Assembly (NCBI GenBank): GCA_009787355.1
Contig: WRGD01000138.1
Location: 1-32,940, forward strand
Direction of reading: 5' to 3'
DNA: 32,940 nucleotides
Source of the DNA: Defluviitaleaceae bacterium
Lineage (GTDB): Bacteria > Bacillota > Clostridia > Lachnospirales > UBA5962
Of this stretch, positions 1 to 5,906 are shown one piece after another. The notes below the pieces were generated by a model. It was not told where the DNA came from. It saw only the letters and a list, made by a program, of their open reading frames with translations, and searched no databases. Both the position numbers and the translations under genes were made by a program. How positions within the stretch are numbered: position 1 is the first letter of the stretch; every line of letters begins with the position of its first letter.

Positions 1-81
1 ACTTATCGTAATCGTCTTAAACGTTTTAATCTAAGAATTTCTCTTATTTGTGCCATTATTAATTTTGAACATGGTTTTTAG
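1..81 (+). mobile_element. C-terminal end of an IS transposase (cut by window edge)
   Basis: An open frame enters from the left edge and stops at TAG 79-81. It encodes 26 residues, including YRNRLKRFNLRISL and then NFEHGF. This Arg-rich tail ending in a short aromatic motif resembles the C-terminus of IS5-type DDE transposases. Only the tail is visible, so the family, the intactness of the element and its terminal inverted repeat cannot be settled. The insertion end should lie within the next few tens of bases, close to the promoter at 117. Its position beside a compact accessory gene cluster suggests mobile or recently rearranged DNA. Confidence 0.55.
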
Positions 82-116
82 TTTCCGAGGAGGTCTAATG
101 TTTTAAAACAAAATAG

Positions 117-145
117 TTGACATAGTGTAAAAAATATGTTATATT
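117..145 (+). promoter_or_regulatory. Consensus sigma-A promoter of the RiPP-like cluster
   Basis: TTGACA (117-122) and TATATT (140-145) are separated by exactly 17 bp. Transcription should start near 152, giving a leader of about 170 nt before the peptide gene at 323. The -35 box lies only 36 bp past the transposase stop codon, so part of the promoter may come from the end of the insertion sequence. The same two hexamers with the same spacing occur at 26319-26347 in front of oppD. Confidence 0.75.
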
Positions 146-216
146 ATGAAAGTAGACATCGAACAAGAAATGATTTTAGGTGGACAGCCTTTTTGAATTT
201 GTAGGTAGATTTCAAA

Positions 217-280
217 CCAAAGGGGTTACCCCTTTGGGGCTTGCTATAGCAAGCCCCAAATAAAAAACAATTATTGTTTT
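217..280 (+). promoter_or_regulatory. Structured 5' leader with chained hairpins
   Basis: Three inverted repeats lie in the predicted transcript leader. CCAAAGGGG (217-225) pairs with CCCCTTTGG (229-237). GGGGCTTGC (236-244) pairs with GCAAGCCCC (249-257) across a TATA loop. AAAACAA (264-270) pairs with TTGTTTT (274-280). The first two share G236-G237, and the CCCC/GGGG tracts could pair in alternative ways, so a switch or attenuator is possible. None has a long U tract directly after a strong stem, so a plain terminator is unlikely. No known riboswitch class was recognised. Confidence 0.45.
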
Positions 281-322
281 GTTTACATACAATCAAAAAT
301 AAAATAGAGGGGAGAACATATC

Positions 323-394
323 ATGAAACTAACACCTGTTAAAAAAGCTGTTGTTAAAAAAATGGATTTTTCTATGAGAAGCCACGACCATTAA
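323..394 (+). CDS. Candidate RiPP precursor peptide (23 aa)
   Basis: This short frame starts at ATG 323 and ends in TAA followed at once by a second TAA. A strong Shine-Dalgarno GAGGGGAG (about 307-314) sits at good spacing, which is the main reason to believe it is translated. The peptide has a basic first half, MKLTPVKKAVVKK, and a different second half, MDFSMRSHDH. It has no Cys, which argues against lanthipeptides and sactipeptides. It lies first in a unit with an adenylating enzyme, an M16-like protein and an exporter, the position of mccA in microcin C operons. Unlike MccA it ends in His, not Asn. The dibasic KK at residues 12-13 is a possible cleavage site. Function is inferred from context only; no homologous peptide is recognised. 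Confidence 0.6.
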   Translation: MKLTPVKKAVVKKMDFSMRSHDH

Positions 395-415
395 TAACTA
401 GTTATTAAATCTGAA

Positions 416-446
416 ATAACTGTCCAATATAGCATTGGACAGTTAT
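416..446 (+). terminator. Perfect 13-bp hairpin between peptide gene and modifying enzyme
   Basis: ATAACTGTCCAAT (416-428) and ATTGGACAGTTAT (434-446) form a perfect stem with a 5-nt loop, 21 nt after the peptide stop codon and 27 nt before the next start. The following sequence lacks a clean U tract. It is therefore more likely a partial terminator, processing site or 3' stabiliser that keeps the short peptide mRNA in excess over the downstream enzyme mRNA. Microcin C operons use the same arrangement between mccA and mccB. Confidence 0.6.
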
Positions 447-473
447 AAATGTTAGTTTAGTTATAATTTATTT

Positions 474-1556
474 ATGAAATTTAATTTTCCTATGACAAAA
501 CCTATGCTAATTCCTTATATTAATGAAAAAGGAAATGCTATATCTATAGGCGGTTTTCAACAAAATATTGCAAGAGATTTAGAAGTTGATAATCCTGAGT
601 TCTTTTTAGAATTTTTGAAATATTTAAACGGAAAAAATTCTTTTGAAGACATAAAAAACAAATTCGATTTAGATAATGAATTGTGTGAAGAAATTTTAGA
701 AAGTTTACTTGAAAATGGTGTAATACAAGAAAATGAAAAAATATTTGATTTTTCAAAAGAGGAATACGAATATTATTCACGAAATATAAACTTTTTTTCA
801 TGGATAGATATAAAAGGTATTTATTATAATTACTGGGAAGTACAGAATATTTTAAAAAATTCTAAAGTATTACTTTTAGGTGCTGGTGGTACTGGTTCTA
901 TAAATGCGATAAACCTAGTTAGATTAGGTATAGGTAGTGTAACAATTGTAGATTATGATGTAGTAGATACAAGTAATTTAAATAGACAAAACTTTTTTTA
1001 CGAAGATATCGGAAAACTAAAAGTAGAAGCCTTGAAAAATCATCTAAACAGAATAAATCCTTTTATATCTATTAACATAATAAACAAAAAAATAGAAACA
1101 TTAAGTGATATTTTAGAAATAAAAGTTGATTTCGACATTGTTATTTGTTGTATAGACAAACCAGATAATGTGCTTGAAATCATGGAAGAATATACAAGTA
1201 TAACAAAAATTCCAAGAATATTAGGAGGTTATGCAAGTACAATAATTAGCCATTCCATTTTTAAAGATAATACACATAGCTATACTAATACTAAAGATAA
1301 TATAATAAATAATCATTTTGATAGTAAAAATGTAGATAAAAATGATTTTTGGAAATGGGATAATGCAGTAATACCTATGGTAGCAAATATAGCCGGTAGC
1401 TTTGCAACTCTAAATGCTTTTTATTATCTTACAAAACTGAATATTTTAAGAGATGGAATAATTCATCATATAGATTTGTATAATTTACAAAGCAATGCTT
1501 TTTCTTATTATATTGGAGAAAATGGAGTTCTAAATATGGAGGATAAAACTATATGA
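474..1556 (+). CDS. ThiF/E1/MccB-like adenylating enzyme with RRE-like N-terminus
   Basis: This 360-residue protein would activate a C-terminal carboxylate with ATP, most likely that of the short peptide encoded just upstream. Residues about 1-90 resemble a winged-helix peptide-recognition (RRE/PqqD-like) domain, with a short beta region and then helices typified by EEILESLLENGVIQ. Residues about 128-340 form the Rossmann-type E1 fold: GAGGTGS at 136-142, Asp160 after the second strand, SNLNRQ at 167-172, GKLK near 180-183 and a CID motif at 226-228. The CxxC zinc pairs of MoeB/ThiF are absent; only three Cys are present, at 71, 225 and 226. No ThiS or MoaD partner is nearby, so a thiamine or molybdopterin role is unlikely. 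The start ATG at 474 lacks a clear Shine-Dalgarno. Its stop overlaps the next start (ATGA), implying translational coupling. The exact chemistry (adenylation, nucleotidyl transfer, cyclisation) is unknown. Confidence 0.75.
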   Translation: MKFNFPMTKPMLIPYINEKGNAISIGGFQQNIARDLEVDNPEFFLEFLKYLNGKNSFEDIKNKFDLDNELCEEILESLLENGVIQENEKIFDFSKEEYEYYSRNINFFSWIDIKGIYYNYWEVQNILKNSKVLLLGAGGTGSINAINLVRLGIGSVTIVDYDVVDTSNLNRQNFFYEDIGKLKVEALKNHLNRINPFISINIINKKIETLSDILEIKVDFDIVICCIDKPDNVLEIMEEYTSITKIPRILGGYASTIISHSIFKDNTHSYTNTKDNIINNHFDSKNVDKNDFWKWDNAVIPMVANIAGSFATLNAFYYLTKLNILRDGIIHHIDLYNLQSNAFSYYIGENGVLNMEDKTI

Positions 1557-1987
1557 TAAATTATATATATTGTAATTTTTTAAAGCCAAAAGATTTTACA
1601 ACAACAGAAATGCACCTTTTTGAACATTGCTATTATAACAAATTATTAAAAATTATAAATAAAAATTTCAAAAATGAAGGATTTGTATACGATGCATCTA
1701 CATCTCTTAGCAATGTTCTTATAGAAACAAATGAAGAAAGTCGTAAATATTTTGAAAAAGAAAGTATAAAATATAAAGCTATAGACACAGAAACAATAGA
1801 AAAGCAAAAACAAGGTTTTATATTATTTTTATATTTAAACGACCCGTATTTAAGAGAATTTAACAAATTTTATGTATCCTCTACATTTATAAAAGAAAAT
1901 TTGAGTATTGAAGAAATTGTGAATATAATAAAACAAATAAAAAGTGATTGTATTTTAGATATTATTAAAAGTGGTGTACTATGCTAA
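1553..1987 (+). CDS. Minimal M16-peptidase-like protein with HxxEH motif
   Basis: This is a 144-residue protein of unusual size. HLFEH at residues 21-25 matches the inverted zinc motif HxxEH of M16 peptidases. It is followed by GFVYDASTSLSNVLIET, which resembles the conserved 'G..NAxT....Y' strand pair of that family. The stretch IDTETIEKQKQG (77-88) aligns in my reading with the helix that normally carries the third zinc ligand, a Glu about 76 residues after the second His. Here that position is hydrophobic (about F92), although E102 lies 77 residues after His25. The protein is roughly one third of a normal M16 subunit, with no second domain visible. It overlaps the gene before it by 4 bp and the exporter after it by 7 bp, so it belongs to the peptide pathway, perhaps as leader protease or substrate chaperone. 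The M16 call rests on motifs read by eye. Confidence 0.5.
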   Translation: MINYIYCNFLKPKDFTTTEMHLFEHCYYNKLLKIINKNFKNEGFVYDASTSLSNVLIETNEESRKYFEKESIKYKAIDTETIEKQKQGFILFLYLNDPYLREFNKFYVSSTFIKENLSIEEIVNIIKQIKSDCILDIIKSGVLC

Positions 1988-3192
1988 TAAATAAAAATTT
2001 TACAAAATTGCTTTTTGGAGATTCTATTAGTAATTTAAGTGGTGCTTTATCTTCTTTAGTAGTAGTATGGGCTATTACACAGCATGAAAACGGTATATTT
2101 TGGGTTGGAGTTTACTATGCAGCAATGCGAGCTTCCGATTTGTTTGCTTTTTTATTTGGTAATTTAGTAGATAGGGTTTCTAACAAAAAAATTCTTGTTT
2201 TTACCGAATTAGGAGCAATGATAATAAAAATAATGTTTACATTAGCTCTATTATTTAATATGTATCTTGGTTTTAATTTACCTCTTGTTTTATCTATTAT
2301 CGTATTTTTTCTAGGAATTATAGAAAATCCTACATATTCAGTTAAACATGCATATACTCAAAAAGCAGTAGAAAAAAAAGATTTAGAAAAAGTCAGTTCT
2401 TATAATTATATGGCAAGAAATATAGGCTCTAATTTATTTAATCCAGTTATAGGTTTTTTAATGAACCATATACTTCATATATACATACTAATATCTAGTA
2501 TTATAACTCATTTTATAGCTACTTTATTTTATAAAAATTTGGAAGACTTAAAAATTGAAAAAGATGTTAAAATAGATAGAACAAATAAGAAAAAGGAAAG
2601 CATTTTTATTGGTTTTAAATATTTGTTCAAAGACAATTTACTAACTTTAATACTTATAGAAGGCTCTTTATTAAATATATTCTTTGCAGGAGTACCTATA
2701 TATTTTGCTATTATAGCAAGTTATCATAACAGCCCATTTATACTTGGTCTTTTAGGTTCTATTATGTCTTTTGGTGGTCTTGTAGGTGCAGTATTTGTTA
2801 CAAGAGTTTTATTTAAAAATATACCTTTAGGTAAAAAAAATATATTATTAAGATTTTTATTAGGTTTATCACTTGCTTTGACATTTTTATTTGTAGAAGA
2901 CTTTTCTATATTAATAATATTGGCTATAGCTGGTGTTTTTTGGGGTTCTACTCATATAACTGGTACACCAGTAGACCAAGCTATAATACCAAAAGAACAT
3001 TTTGGTAAAATAAGACAAGCTATGTATACAATTTCTGTAGGTATAATGCCTCTAGGTTCTTTATTTTTCGGTATTATGTCAGAACATATAAGTTTATCTT
3101 TGTTTTTTATATTATTTGGCTCTACTTATATATTTTTTAGTATTTTGATGTTTTTTAATAAAAGAATGAGAGAGCTTTCTTTAGAAAATTAA
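1981..3192 (+). CDS. MFS transporter, probable peptide exporter/immunity
   Basis: This 403-residue, highly hydrophobic protein has the length and repeated membrane segments of a 12-helix major facilitator. The N-terminal half includes the loop FGNLVDRVSNKKILVF, a variant of the MFS 2-3 loop motif (G-x-x-x-D-R-x-x-x-K). A hydrophilic central loop near residues 190-210 (LKIEKDVKIDRTNKKK) separates the two six-helix halves. Its start overlaps the preceding gene by 7 bp, and a terminator follows 54 bp after the stop. In microcin C operons mccC is an MFS exporter that secretes the product and protects the producer. By position this gene should do the same, but the substrate cannot be read from sequence. 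Confidence 0.8.
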   Translation: MLINKNFTKLLFGDSISNLSGALSSLVVVWAITQHENGIFWVGVYYAAMRASDLFAFLFGNLVDRVSNKKILVFTELGAMIIKIMFTLALLFNMYLGFNLPLVLSIIVFFLGIIENPTYSVKHAYTQKAVEKKDLEKVSSYNYMARNIGSNLFNPVIGFLMNHILHIYILISSIITHFIATLFYKNLEDLKIEKDVKIDRTNKKKESIFIGFKYLFKDNLLTLILIEGSLLNIFFAGVPIYFAIIASYHNSPFILGLLGSIMSFGGLVGAVFVTRVLFKNIPLGKKNILLRFLLGLSLALTFLFVEDFSILIILAIAGVFWGSTHITGTPVDQAIIPKEHFGKIRQAMYTISVGIMPLGSLFFGIMSEHISLSLFFILFGSTYIFFSILMFFNKRMRELSLEN

Positions 3193-3245
3193 AAAATAAT
3201 TAAATCAGTAGTTTTACTTAGTAAAGCTAGATAAAGATGCTCAAC

Positions 3246-3306
3246 TTCTTTTGGGTACATACCCAAAAGAATCATCAAATCTTTTAAAACATTTGATGAT
3301 TTTTTT
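3246..3306 (+). terminator. Terminator closing the RiPP-like unit (two stems)
   Basis: TTCTTTTGGGT (3246-3256) pairs with ACCCAAAAGAA (3261-3271). Directly after it, ATCATCAAAT (3271-3280) pairs with ATTTGATGAT (3291-3300) and is followed by six T. The second stem plus T tract is a standard + strand intrinsic terminator. It also separates the MFS gene from the converging selA gene. Confidence 0.75.
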
Positions 3307-3318
3307 GCGGTAAATACT

Positions 3319-4692
3319 TCAAATCTCCAAAAAAGACTTTTGTAAATAATCAAAATATTTTTCTTCTACCGTTCGTAAATCTAAAACAATATGGTCATTT
3401 TTTGTTACACAAATAACAGGAATTTGTAAATTTCTAAGATATATTTCAAGGCTTGCAACACTAATGTATAAAGGTTTTATAAAAACTGCATAGCTTTTTA
3501 TAAATTCATCAGGCAATGCTCCACCACCAAACATGGCTTCATTTTCATCTATATAACATAGAATTTTTTCATTGTTTTTTAATAATGAATATAGTTTTTC
3601 TGCTTTTTCCAAAATATTTTCTTTTGGTGTAATCATATTTCTTATAACAGGAATATCCATATATTCGCCTTTTATATATTGAATAAGAGTAGCTTCAAGT
3701 GCAATAAGACACAATTTATCTAGTCTCATTGTTCTATACATTTGGTTTTCTTTTATTTTAGAGATATATTCTTTTTTACCTACTATAATTCCAGCTTGAG
3801 GACCACCTAAAACTTTATCTCCAGAAAATGTTACTATATCTACACCATCTTGTATTACTTTTTTTACAGTTTTTTCTCCTTTTATACCATATTTAGATAA
3901 ATCTATTAAAATACCAGAACCTACATCTTCTATTACTATAATATTATCATTTTTTATTTTTACCATTTCTTCAGAAGATACTTCAGCAGTAAATCCTATT
4001 ATTTTAAAGTTAGATTTGTGTACTTTTAAAAAAGCTGAAGTATTTTCGGTTATATTGTTCTTATAGTCGGATATTTTTGTTTTATTTGTTGTTCCAACTT
4101 CTTTTAAAATACAGCCACTCTCTTCTATTATATTTGAGACTCTAAAAGAACCACCAATTTCGACAAGCTCTCCCCTAGATATTATAACTTCTTTATTTTT
4201 ACAAAGACTATTTAATACAATGTATATAGCAGCTGCATTATTATTTACTACAACTGCACTCTCTGCTCCTGTTAATTCTTTTAAAATATTTTCTATATAC
4301 GATAAACGACTCCCACGAATTCCTGTATCTATATTGTATTCTAAATTGTTATAGTCGCTCCCTACTTCGTTTATTCGGTCTATAGCAAATTTTGATAATG
4401 GAGACCTACCTAAATTTGTATGAACTATTATACCTGTAGCGTTTATAACAGGTTTTAGCCTATTATTTTTTTGTTCTTGTAATCTTGCAAAAACAGCCGT
4501 TTTCAAAAAGTCTATAGCACTTTGCTTTGTATTTATCTGAATTTCATTATTTTTTATAAGAGTTCTTAAATACTCCGTTTCAAGCCTCAAAATATTTGTT
4601 ACTACCTTTTTAGAGTAGTTTTCTTTTGCAATTACTATATCCTTGTCATTAAGAAGCTCATCTATTTTAGGAATAATTCTAAAACTGTTCAT
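3319..4692 (-). CDS. selA: L-seryl-tRNA(Sec) selenium transferase SelA
   Basis: SelA is a PLP enzyme that converts Ser-tRNA(Sec) to Sec-tRNA(Sec) with selenophosphate. The 457-residue length fits the family. The PLP motif SGDKVLGGPQAG carries the expected lysine at residue 293. Upstream are INATGIIVHTNLGRSPLS and the N-terminal helical tRNA-binding region (residues 1-75). A Shine-Dalgarno AAAGGA precedes ATG 4692. It follows a cysteine desulfurase gene by 26 bp, so the two are probably co-transcribed, and the desulfurase may supply reduced selenium or sulfur. selD, selB and selC, often linked, are not in this window. The intact N-terminal domain separates it from the SelA-like DgaE at 19371-20537. 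Confidence 0.9.
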   Translation of the reverse strand: MNSFRIIPKIDELLNDKDIVIAKENYSKKVVTNILRLETEYLRTLIKNNEIQINTKQSAIDFLKTAVFARLQEQKNNRLKPVINATGIIVHTNLGRSPLSKFAIDRINEVGSDYNNLEYNIDTGIRGSRLSYIENILKELTGAESAVVVNNNAAAIYIVLNSLCKNKEVIISRGELVEIGGSFRVSNIIEESGCILKEVGTTNKTKISDYKNNITENTSAFLKVHKSNFKIIGFTAEVSSEEMVKIKNDNIIVIEDVGSGILIDLSKYGIKGEKTVKKVIQDGVDIVTFSGDKVLGGPQAGIIVGKKEYISKIKENQMYRTMRLDKLCLIALEATLIQYIKGEYMDIPVIRNMITPKENILEKAEKLYSLLKNNEKILCYIDENEAMFGGGALPDEFIKSYAVFIKPLYISVASLEIYLRNLQIPVICVTKNDHIVLDLRTVEEKYFDYLQKSFLEI

Positions 4693-4718
4693 ATTTTCCT
4701 TTTTAATTTTTTCTTATA

Positions 4719-5906
4719 TTAGCTATTTTCATTAAGATATTTTTTGTATGCAGGAGATAGTTTTCTTAACTGACTTACAACTGTTGGTAACTCCTTAATT
4801 ATAATATCTACATCTTCTTCTGTATTGTATCTTCCTAGCGATATTCTAAGAGAGCCGTGGCTTTCATGTGTGCTAACACCCATTGCAGTAAGCACATGGC
4901 TTGGTTCGAAACTACCAGAAGAACAAGCAGAGCCACCGGATGCAGTTATACCCCTGTTGTCCAAAAACATAAGTAATCCTTCACTTTCTATAAAGCTAAA
5001 AGTTATATTTACAATATGTGGCATACGATTTGTTTCATCACCATTTATTTTAGTAGCTGGTATATTTTCTGTAATTCCTTTTATTAGCTTTTTTGTAAGT
5101 TTTTTTAGCCTTTCTACTTCGTTTAACTGTGTTTCTTTTGCTAACCTTACAGCTTCTCCAAAGCCAACAATAGCAGGTACATTTTGGGTTCCAGCACGCC
5201 TATGACGTTCTTGACCACCTCCATGTAAAATAGGTATTATTTTTACATTGTTAGATACATACAAAGCTCCTATTCCCTTTGGTCCATACAATTTATGTGC
5301 AGAAAGTGAAAGTAAATCTATTCCCATACTTTCTACATTTATCGGTATGTAAGCAAGAGCTTGTACAGCATCTGTATGAAAGTATACATTGTTTTGTTTT
5401 GCAATAGCACCTATTTCATTAATTGGCTGTATTGCACCTGTTTCATTGTTGCAAAACATTACAGATATTAATATTGTTGTAGGTTTTATAGCATTTTTTA
5501 AATTCTCTATATCAATAATTCCATTTTCTTTAACTTTTAAATATGTTATTTCAAAACCATAGTTTTTTTCTAAATCTTCACACGGATGCAAAATAGCATG
5601 ATGTTCTATACTTGTTGTTATTATATGATTTCCCTTATTTTTATTTGCAAAAGCAATACCTTTTATAGCCCAATTGTCTGCCTCTGTTCCTGTTCCTGTA
5701 AAATATATTTCATTAGGATTACTAGCTCCTATAGCTTCGGATATTATATTTCTTACATTGTCTATTGATTTTCTTGTAAAACTACCCATTTTATGAGTGC
5801 TAGCAGCATTTCCATAATTCTCTGTAAAAAAAGGCAACATAGTAGACAATACTTCATCCGACATTTTTGTTGTCGCAGCATTATCTACATATATATCGTA
5901 TTTCAT
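4719..5906 (-). CDS. Cysteine desulfurase (NifS/IscS family)
   Basis: This PLP enzyme releases sulfur (or selenium) from cysteine or selenocysteine as an enzyme-bound persulfide. Features seen are YVDNAATTKMS at the N-terminus, HTDAVQA, SAHKLYGPKG with the PLP lysine at about residue 205, and GGSACSSGSF with the catalytic Cys at about 328, in a loop of IscS/NifS type. I start it at ATG 5906 (395 aa), because AAAAGGAGT lies 6-7 nt upstream. A longer frame from 5927 would place that site inside the gene. It sits directly upstream of selA, which suggests selenium delivery, and no iscU or nifU homologue is adjacent. A general Fe-S or tRNA thiolation role remains equally possible. Confidence 0.88.
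   Translation of the reverse strand: MKYDIYVDNAATTKMSDEVLSTMLPFFTENYGNAASTHKMGSFTRKSIDNVRNIISEAIGASNPNEIYFTGTGTEADNWAIKGIAFANKNKGNHIITTSIEHHAILHPCEDLEKNYGFEITYLKVKENGIIDIENLKNAIKPTTILISVMFCNNETGAIQPINEIGAIAKQNNVYFHTDAVQALAYIPINVESMGIDLLSLSAHKLYGPKGIGALYVSNNVKIIPILHGGGQERHRRAGTQNVPAIVGFGEAVRLAKETQLNEVERLKKLTKKLIKGITENIPATKINGDETNRMPHIVNITFSFIESEGLLMFLDNRGITASGGSACSSGSFEPSHVLTAMGVSTHESHGSLRISLGRYNTEEDVDIIIKELPTVVSQLRKLSPAYKKYLNENS

What the first reader, a model, noticed from the sequence alone, without database searches (positions are those of the whole stretch)
117..3306. Compact RiPP-like cluster: short peptide, ThiF/MccB-like enzyme, M16-like protein, MFS exporter
Seen: strong promoter, 23-codon ORF with excellent ribosome site, hairpin, then three overlapping genes and a terminator. 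Established: microcin C uses a tiny mccA, an E1-like MccB and an MFS exporter MccC. Inference: this is a microcin-C-like or related peptide antibiotic or signal system in a spore-forming Clostridium, with an extra M16-like component. I do not recognise this exact gene set from a described product.
Basis: partly seen in the sequence, partly recalled or inferred. Interest (0 to 1): 0.88.

Follow-up and report, generated by a model that had tools for sequence, protein, structure and literature searches.

The report
Unusual ThiF-made modified-peptide gene cluster
A four-gene unit in a Clostridia genome very probably makes a small modified peptide: a 23-residue precursor is chemically activated at its tail by a ThiF-type enzyme, trimmed by a miniature M16-type protease and exported; such clusters are a known kind, but this precursor's tail lacks the residues used by the relatives whose chemistry has been worked out, so the bond it forms may be new.

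Summary
In detail: a promoter-like site, a 23-codon ORF (323-394) with a ribosome site, a 13-bp hairpin, three overlapping genes (474-1556, 1553-1987, 1981-3192) and a terminator-like hairpin. The enzyme is an RRE-ThiF adenylyltransferase; a profile containing it aligns with PaaA over positions 4-353 (E 2e-43). I found 20-odd clusters in Streptococcus, plasmids and the window's own genome; in most, a 15-30-aa ribosome-site-led ORF precedes such a ThiF, usually with a hairpin between, as here. So this is a ThiF-like-adenylyltransferase (TLAT) RiPP cluster. The microcin C reading is not supported: the peptide ends in His, not Asn, and the enzyme is nearer to other TLATs than to MccB. The closest published layout is the S. 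pneumoniae 'ind' cluster (precursor, ThiF, M16 protease, transporter; 2025). Yet the enzyme lies outside the well-supported IndF and WWII/enterofaecin-type clades, and the tail (SMRSHDH) has no Trp, Cys or Asn. The 144-aa protein misses Pfam M16, but carries HxxEH-x17-GxxxxAxTS, found otherwise only in true M16 proteins here and in none of a million shuffles. Most likely product: a C-terminally activated, cyclised (-18 Da) peptide. Linkage and bioactivity are untested.

The parts
1..99 (+). 3' end of an insertion-sequence-like repeat (end of a probable transposase frame) at the contig edge, directly upstream of the cluster
   Evidence: 1-116 matches 9 other places in the same genome at 87-100%, many at contig ends; most copies stop near 97-100. 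Transposase identity is inference
117..145 (+). promoter-like site TTGACA-17-TATATT, TG before the -10
   Evidence: 11 of 12 matches; sequence alone
307..314 (+). ribosome-binding site GAGGGGAG, 8 nt before the ATG
323..394 (+). precursor peptide gene, 23 aa: MKLTPVKKAVVKKMDFSMRSHDH
   Evidence: same geometry as precursors of homologous clusters; leader motif V6-K7-K8-A9
338..349 (+). leader motif VKKA, in register with V6-[RK]-K8-[AL] of WWII-type precursors; presumed RRE contact
   Evidence: motif (V/I)RKA from PMC12250964
371..391 (+). presumed C-terminal core SMRSHDH (no Cys, Trp or Asn)
   Evidence: sequence; core boundary is inference
416..446 (+). hairpin between precursor and ThiF genes, 13 bp, loop 5
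   Evidence: hairpins at the same place in many homologous clusters
474..1556 (+). RRE-ThiF adenylyltransferase, 360 aa (RRE about residues 1-95, E1/ThiF domain about 101-320); no Shine-Dalgarno before its ATG; no CxxC zinc pairs
   Evidence: PF00899 5.7e-33; MccB/PaaA; GAGGTG136, R171, Q172, K183, D228 kept
1553..1987 (+). 144-aa M16-like miniature protein (HLFEH at residues 21-25, GFVYDASTS at 43-51), likely leader peptidase
   Evidence: composite motif unique to M16 proteins in 1050 ORFs and 0 of 1,000,000 shuffles; no Pfam hit; position as IndP
1981..3192 (+). MFS transporter, 403 aa, presumed exporter/immunity
   Evidence: PF07690 1.8e-24, PF05977 8.6e-12
3265..3306 (+). terminator-like A/T-rich hairpin with T-run

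Best explanation
It is a TLAT-type RiPP cluster (ribosomal peptide modified by a ThiF-like adenylyltransferase). The 23-mer is translated in excess over the enzyme (good ribosome site on the precursor, hairpin after it, no ribosome site before ThiF). The enzyme's N-terminal RRE holds the Lys-rich leader (VKKA). The ThiF domain uses ATP and Mg to adenylate the C-terminal carboxylate (His23), and a nucleophile inside the peptide attacks it, giving a macrocycle and a loss of 18 Da. With no Trp or Cys in the peptide, the likeliest nucleophiles are Ser20 or Ser17 (ester), a backbone amide (imide, as in enterofaecin) or Lys12/Lys13 (amide). The 144-aa M16-like protein then removes the leader and the MFS protein exports the product, which is a small antibiotic or a signal. 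Shown by sequence: gene order, adenylation motifs, precursor geometry, M16 motif, MFS. Inferred: every chemical step, the core boundary and the biological role.
For: ThiF domain and adenylation residues kept. A profile including it aligns with PaaA over 4-353 (E 1.8e-43) and with MccB (E 9e-54). Homologous clusters in 20 of 197 Streptococcus species genomes, on plasmids and at two other loci of the same genome; most that I could read have an SD-led short ORF before ThiF, often with a hairpin between. An M16 protein directly follows ThiF in the characterised ind cluster, where an M16 protein cuts off the leader (L112, L115, L116, L119). Composite M16 motif in the 144-aa protein. The TLATs characterised in the papers read activate a carboxylate, and four (PaaA, GrcB, EnfB, IndF) then form an intramolecular bond.
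Against: No relative with the same precursor tail was found, so precursor conservation could not be tested for this subtype. The 144-aa protein has no Pfam M16 hit, profile scores like those of shuffles, and its third zinc ligand is unclear (E102 sits 77 after the second His, 71-76 in true M16s, in a different context). The enzyme is a lone long branch. Structure models were poor (pLDDT 49.5 and 40.2).
Confidence: 0.7

Rival explanations
1. Microcin-C-type Trojan horse: the enzyme links a nucleotide to the peptide's C-terminus through a phosphoramidate, and the product poisons an aminoacyl-tRNA synthetase.
For: MccB and PaaA are the best PDB matches; short precursor plus ThiF plus MFS is the mccA-B-C plan.
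Against: The C-terminal residue is His, not the Asn that MccB converts through a succinimide (PMC12250964). MccB is more distant (74.7 bits for the fragment tested) than other TLATs (117 bits). No MccE/MccF-type immunity gene in the operon. A protease in the operon fits leader removal rather than the leaderless heptapeptide scheme.
Confidence: 0.12
2. An ind-type cluster proper: a divergent IndA/IndF/IndP making an ind-like macrocycle.
For: Same gene order with an M16 protein overlapping the 3' end of ThiF, as in L112 and L115; single-domain M16 as in SpIndP.
Against: Enzyme outside the IndF clade (branch support 100/100); no NWYFI/NWNFI tail and no Trp; basic rather than acidic leader; MFS instead of the ABC-like transporter.
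Confidence: 0.06
3. The 23-mer is not a substrate: it is an upstream regulatory ORF or chance, and the ThiF enzyme activates some other carboxylate or protein.
For: No relative of the 23-mer was found; the 5' leader has strong palindromes (206-262) that could regulate.
Against: Same ORF geometry in most homologous clusters, including the characterised IndA (recovered by the same screen); leader-motif register; RRE-like N-terminus on the enzyme.
Confidence: 0.08

Closest known systems
ind cluster of Streptococcus pneumoniae (IndA, IndF, IndP, transporter; indolylamide RiPP; PMC12150305)
   Same: Short precursor, RRE-ThiF enzyme, M16 protein (single-domain in S. pneumoniae) overlapping the end of ThiF, transporter.
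   Different: IndF clade excludes the window enzyme; IndA ends in NWYFI/NWNFI and cyclises through Trp; acidic leader; ABC-like transporter; CxxC zinc pairs kept in IndF of L112/L115 but lost here.
Enterofaecin (EnfA/EnfB; WWIVI tail; PMC12250964)
   Same: RRE-ThiF enzyme; precursor of about 20 aa with a (V/I)(R/K)KA leader motif in the same register as WWII-type precursors.
   Different: WW tail and ABC transporters; WWII-type enzymes form a separate clade (100/99). Its likely counterpart in this genome is on contig C81.
Microcin C (MccA/MccB/MccC)
   Same: Tiny precursor, ThiF-like adenylyltransferase, MFS exporter.
   Different: Seven-residue precursor ending in Asn, nucleotide attachment; here a leader-bearing 23-mer ending in His, and an M16-like protein.
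Pantocin A (PaaP/PaaA)
   Same: RRE-ThiF enzyme aligns over almost its whole length.
   Different: PaaA's bicyclic Glu-derived core has no counterpart in this peptide (no Glu in the 23-mer).
MFS-linked ThiF clusters found here (tails GSC, AVEG, GGVPG, LGGR; Streptococcus L101, L106, L107, L109, plasmids L058, L060, Pantoea L155)
   Same: Short precursor, RRE-ThiF, MFS exporter.
   Different: None has the M16-like gene in the stretch read; tails differ; local identity to the window enzyme 31-39%.

Membership tests
TLAT (ThiF-like adenylyltransferase) RiPP clusters | RRE fused to a ThiF/E1 adenylation domain with intact ATP/Mg residues | tested here: met
   PF00899 5.7e-33; profile aligns with PaaA 4-353; GAGGTG136, R171, K183, D228 kept. 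The RRE itself rests on this alignment and weak wHTH hits, not on a good model
TLAT (ThiF-like adenylyltransferase) RiPP clusters | short SD-led precursor gene just upstream | tested here: met
   IndA of L115/L116 is recovered by the same screen
TLAT (ThiF-like adenylyltransferase) RiPP clusters | enzyme modifies the precursor's carboxylate with ATP | not testable with these tools
   needs enzyme assay
Microcin C | precursor ends in Asn | tested here: not met
   ends in ...SHDH
Microcin C | enzyme closest to MccB | tested here: not met
   MccB fragment 74.7 bits against 117 for L101 and L155
ind (indolylamide) cluster | IndF-clade enzyme | tested here: not met
   IndF clade 100/100 excludes the window enzyme; its own place is not resolved
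ind (indolylamide) cluster | precursor with core Trp and NWxFI tail | tested here: not met
   no Trp in the 23-mer
ind (indolylamide) cluster | M16 protein after ThiF | tested here: inconclusive
   position and composite motif match; no Pfam hit
Enterofaecin/WWII-type | WWII-type tail and clade | tested here: not met
Peptidase family M16 | HxxEH followed by the G-x4-[GA]-x-T(S) strand | tested here: met
   only M16 proteins and this one among 1050 ORFs; 0 of 1,000,000 shuffles
Peptidase family M16 | significant profile match | tested here: not met
   no PF00675 hit at E<=10; M16 and IndP profiles score shuffles as well or better, or match outside the motif
Peptidase family M16 | third zinc ligand Glu about 71-76 after the second His | tested here: inconclusive
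   E102 at +77, unmatched context

The most novel reading that the evidence does not exclude
The enzyme makes a C-terminal linkage not yet described for ThiF-like RiPP enzymes, such as a Ser-to-C-terminus macrolactone, a Lys macrolactam or a His-based bond, in a leader-bearing peptide ending in SHDH, with a half-size M16 domain as dedicated leader peptidase: a separate TLAT subfamily in Clostridia.
Probability: 0.4. Interest if true: 0.7.

Novelty: new variant of a known kind. Interest (0 to 1): 0.52.

Why it matters
Each characterised ThiF-like RiPP enzyme has turned out to use a different partner (nucleotide on Asn, Glu chemistry, Cys, backbone amide, Trp). A cluster whose precursor has none of the special side chains is a direct, small (four genes, one 23-mer) test of how far this chemistry reaches. 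The 144-aa M16-like protein would be an exceptionally small leader peptidase of its family. The genome also carries two further ThiF clusters, so ThiF-made peptides are not confined to lactic acid bacteria, bacilli and enterobacteria; in the 391 sampled Clostridia genomes I saw no other clear RRE-spanning match at the threshold used.

Tried and rejected
AlphaFold models of the 144-aa protein and of the enzyme were too poor to use (pLDDT 49.5, 40.2), so no fold search was run. Relatives of the 144-aa protein: none convincing in 392 genomes of the order, 398 of the phylum, plasmids or viral contigs. Single-protein scans of genome contigs and viral contigs for the enzyme found nothing; a three-sequence profile found one Streptococcus gallolyticus locus, which opened the Streptococcus survey. 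HMM and hhalign comparison of the 144-aa protein with IndP gave no significant match; the composite motif test did, though the motif was chosen after seeing the sequence. Rejected: housekeeping ThiF/MoeB (the enzyme misses every NCBIfam equivalog cut-off, and has an extra N-terminal domain) and defence E1-E2 systems (PADLOC matches only the shared adenylation core; no E2 or Ubl-like gene nearby). The 5'-leader palindromes (206-262) are not a repeat family in this genome.
Full report
What is there. Bases 1-116 match nine other places in that genome at 87-100%, many of them at contig ends, so they look like the end of an insertion sequence. The operon starts right after it: promoter-like TTGACA-17-TATATT at 117-145, a long 5' leader with two overlapping palindromes (206-262), ribosome site GAGGGGAG, and the 23-codon ORF 323-394. 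A 13-bp hairpin (416-446) follows, then ThiF 474-1556, a 144-aa gene 1553-1987, an MFS gene 1981-3192 and a terminator-like hairpin at about 3265-3306. The ThiF start codon has no Shine-Dalgarno sequence although its place fits the alignment of homologues. I read this as many precursors per enzyme (inference).

The enzyme. ThiF domain PF00899, E 5.7e-33. The best solved relatives are MccB and PaaA. A profile of seven such enzymes, the window's among them, aligns with PaaA over profile positions 4-353 (E 1.8e-43) and with MccB from position 64, so the N-terminal 95 residues fit a fused RRE; my structure model was too poor to show this directly. GxGGxG, R171, Q172, K183 and D228 are kept. These would correspond to the ATP-binding Arg167 and Lys180 and the Mg-binding Asp225 of EnfB described in PMC12250964; that correspondence is my inference from spacing. 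The two CxxC zinc pairs of most relatives are missing here, as in L101, L102 and L062.

Neighbours of homologues. tblastn on plasmids, 197 Streptococcus species genomes (20 with a match at E<=1e-12) and the window's own genome gave about 25 readable clusters. In most of them a 15-30 aa SD-led ORF precedes ThiF by 109-433 nt, usually with a hairpin between (in about half of them stronger than all 40 shuffles). The tails sort into types: VEGR/VEPR, WWII(V), SWGVF/SWGII/LWVVF, NWYFI/NWNFI, GSC, AVEG, GGVPG, LGGR. The screen recovers the published IndA (L115, L116), which validates it; a few loci (arginase-linked, Exiguobacterium, Niallia) gave no clear ORF. The window's tail, SMRSHDH, matches none. 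Its leader has VKKA at residues 6-9, in register with VRKL/VRKA/VRKV of WWII- and SWG-type precursors and close to the (V/I)RKA motif that EnfB needs (PMC12250964); 0.17% of shuffles of the 23-mer do this.

Placement. A maximum-likelihood tree leaves the window enzyme as a lone long branch (1.61 changes per site; best identity 31% over 303 columns), outside the IndF clade (100/100) and outside the WWII/SWG clade (100/99). BLAST ranks Streptococcus L101 and Pantoea L155, both MFS-linked, first (117 bits), IndF at 81 and the MccB part at 74.7. Among 391 genomes sampled from the class, the window's own was the only one with clear matches at E<=1e-19 spanning the RRE region.

The 144-aa protein. 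It has no hit in Pfam, NCBIfam or PADLOC, no significant solved relative, and profile comparisons with IndP and general M16 domains are no better than shuffles or align elsewhere. Yet it carries HLFEH, a 17-residue gap and GFVYDASTS; the pattern HxxEH-x(16,22)-G-x4-[GA]-x-T fits IndPs and ordinary M16s of related genomes (for example HFMEH...GGQLNAFTS), fits no other of 1050 ORFs read here, and occurs in 0 of 1,000,000 shuffles; HxxEH alone occurs in 0.13%. The pattern was framed after seeing the protein. The third zinc ligand is not settled (E102 at +77). I hold M16 descent at about 80% and peptidase activity at about 65%. Position supports it: IndP also overlaps the end of its ThiF gene, and SpIndP is itself single-domain.

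Mechanism. In the characterised cases covered by the papers read, the ThiF-like enzyme adenylates a carboxylate and a nucleophile attacks: nucleotide transfer in microcin C, and intramolecular bonds in pantocin, GrcA, EnfA and IndA. By analogy, His23's carboxylate is activated and the peptide cyclises with loss of water; Ser20/Ser17, a backbone amide or Lys12/13 are the candidate partners. The M16-like protein would cut off the leader, the MFS protein export the product. None of these chemical steps is shown here.

Verdict. The layout has been published for the ind cluster; what is new is the separate enzyme lineage, the tail without the usual nucleophiles, the very small M16-like protein and a host genome with three ThiF clusters.

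Noticed in passing
L032 (G000:C81:6500-11307), precursor 4477-4539 minus, ThiF 3264-4394 minus: The same genome has an enterofaecin-type cluster: precursor MTNVKVRKLENLEATWWIIV, hairpin, RRE-ThiF, a membrane protein with HELMH (M50-like) and an ABC exporter; near relatives in Streptococcus (L104) and Niallia (L056).
   Followed up: partly
L031 (G000:C104:9500-15855), 3984-5108 minus: A third RRE-ThiF cluster (with HEFMH membrane protein and ABC exporter) has no clear precursor; the only strongly SD-led short ORF before ThiF is a 7-codon TTG ORF, MNKYKTF, 34 nt upstream.
   Followed up: partly
window 1-116: End of a repeated element found at 9 other places, many at contig ends, so it probably broke the assembly there; the RiPP operon lies right beside it.
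   Followed up: partly
window 206-262: Two overlapping palindromes in the 5' leader (CCAAAGGGGTTACCCCTTTGG and GGGGCTTGCTATAGCAAGCCCC), not repeated elsewhere in the genome; possible RNA regulator or protein-binding site.
   Followed up: partly
L058 (Lactiplantibacillus plantarum plasmid NZ_CP028335.1), about 3575-3930: Two near-identical tandem precursors (MEKVSEVKVLAHEEKNGSC, MKKVSEVKVLAHEEKNGSC) before a ThiF gene and an MFS gene, with a hairpin of about 22 bp.
   Followed up: no
L112 (Streptococcus genome G799), 2484-4764 minus: An ind-like cluster with an IndA variant ending in NWNFI instead of NWYFI.
   Followed up: no
L101/L102 (Streptococcus G869, G944): ThiF of 320 aa without zinc Cys pairs plus MFS, with a probable precursor MSAVPYSFQGHRLGGR 433 nt upstream: a compact type without the leader motif.
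   Followed up: no
L031 6230-6356 and L032 4622-4808: Both sibling ThiF contigs end in short tandem repeats (SETTSETTS-type in one frame, and CATATC hexamers).
   Followed up: no
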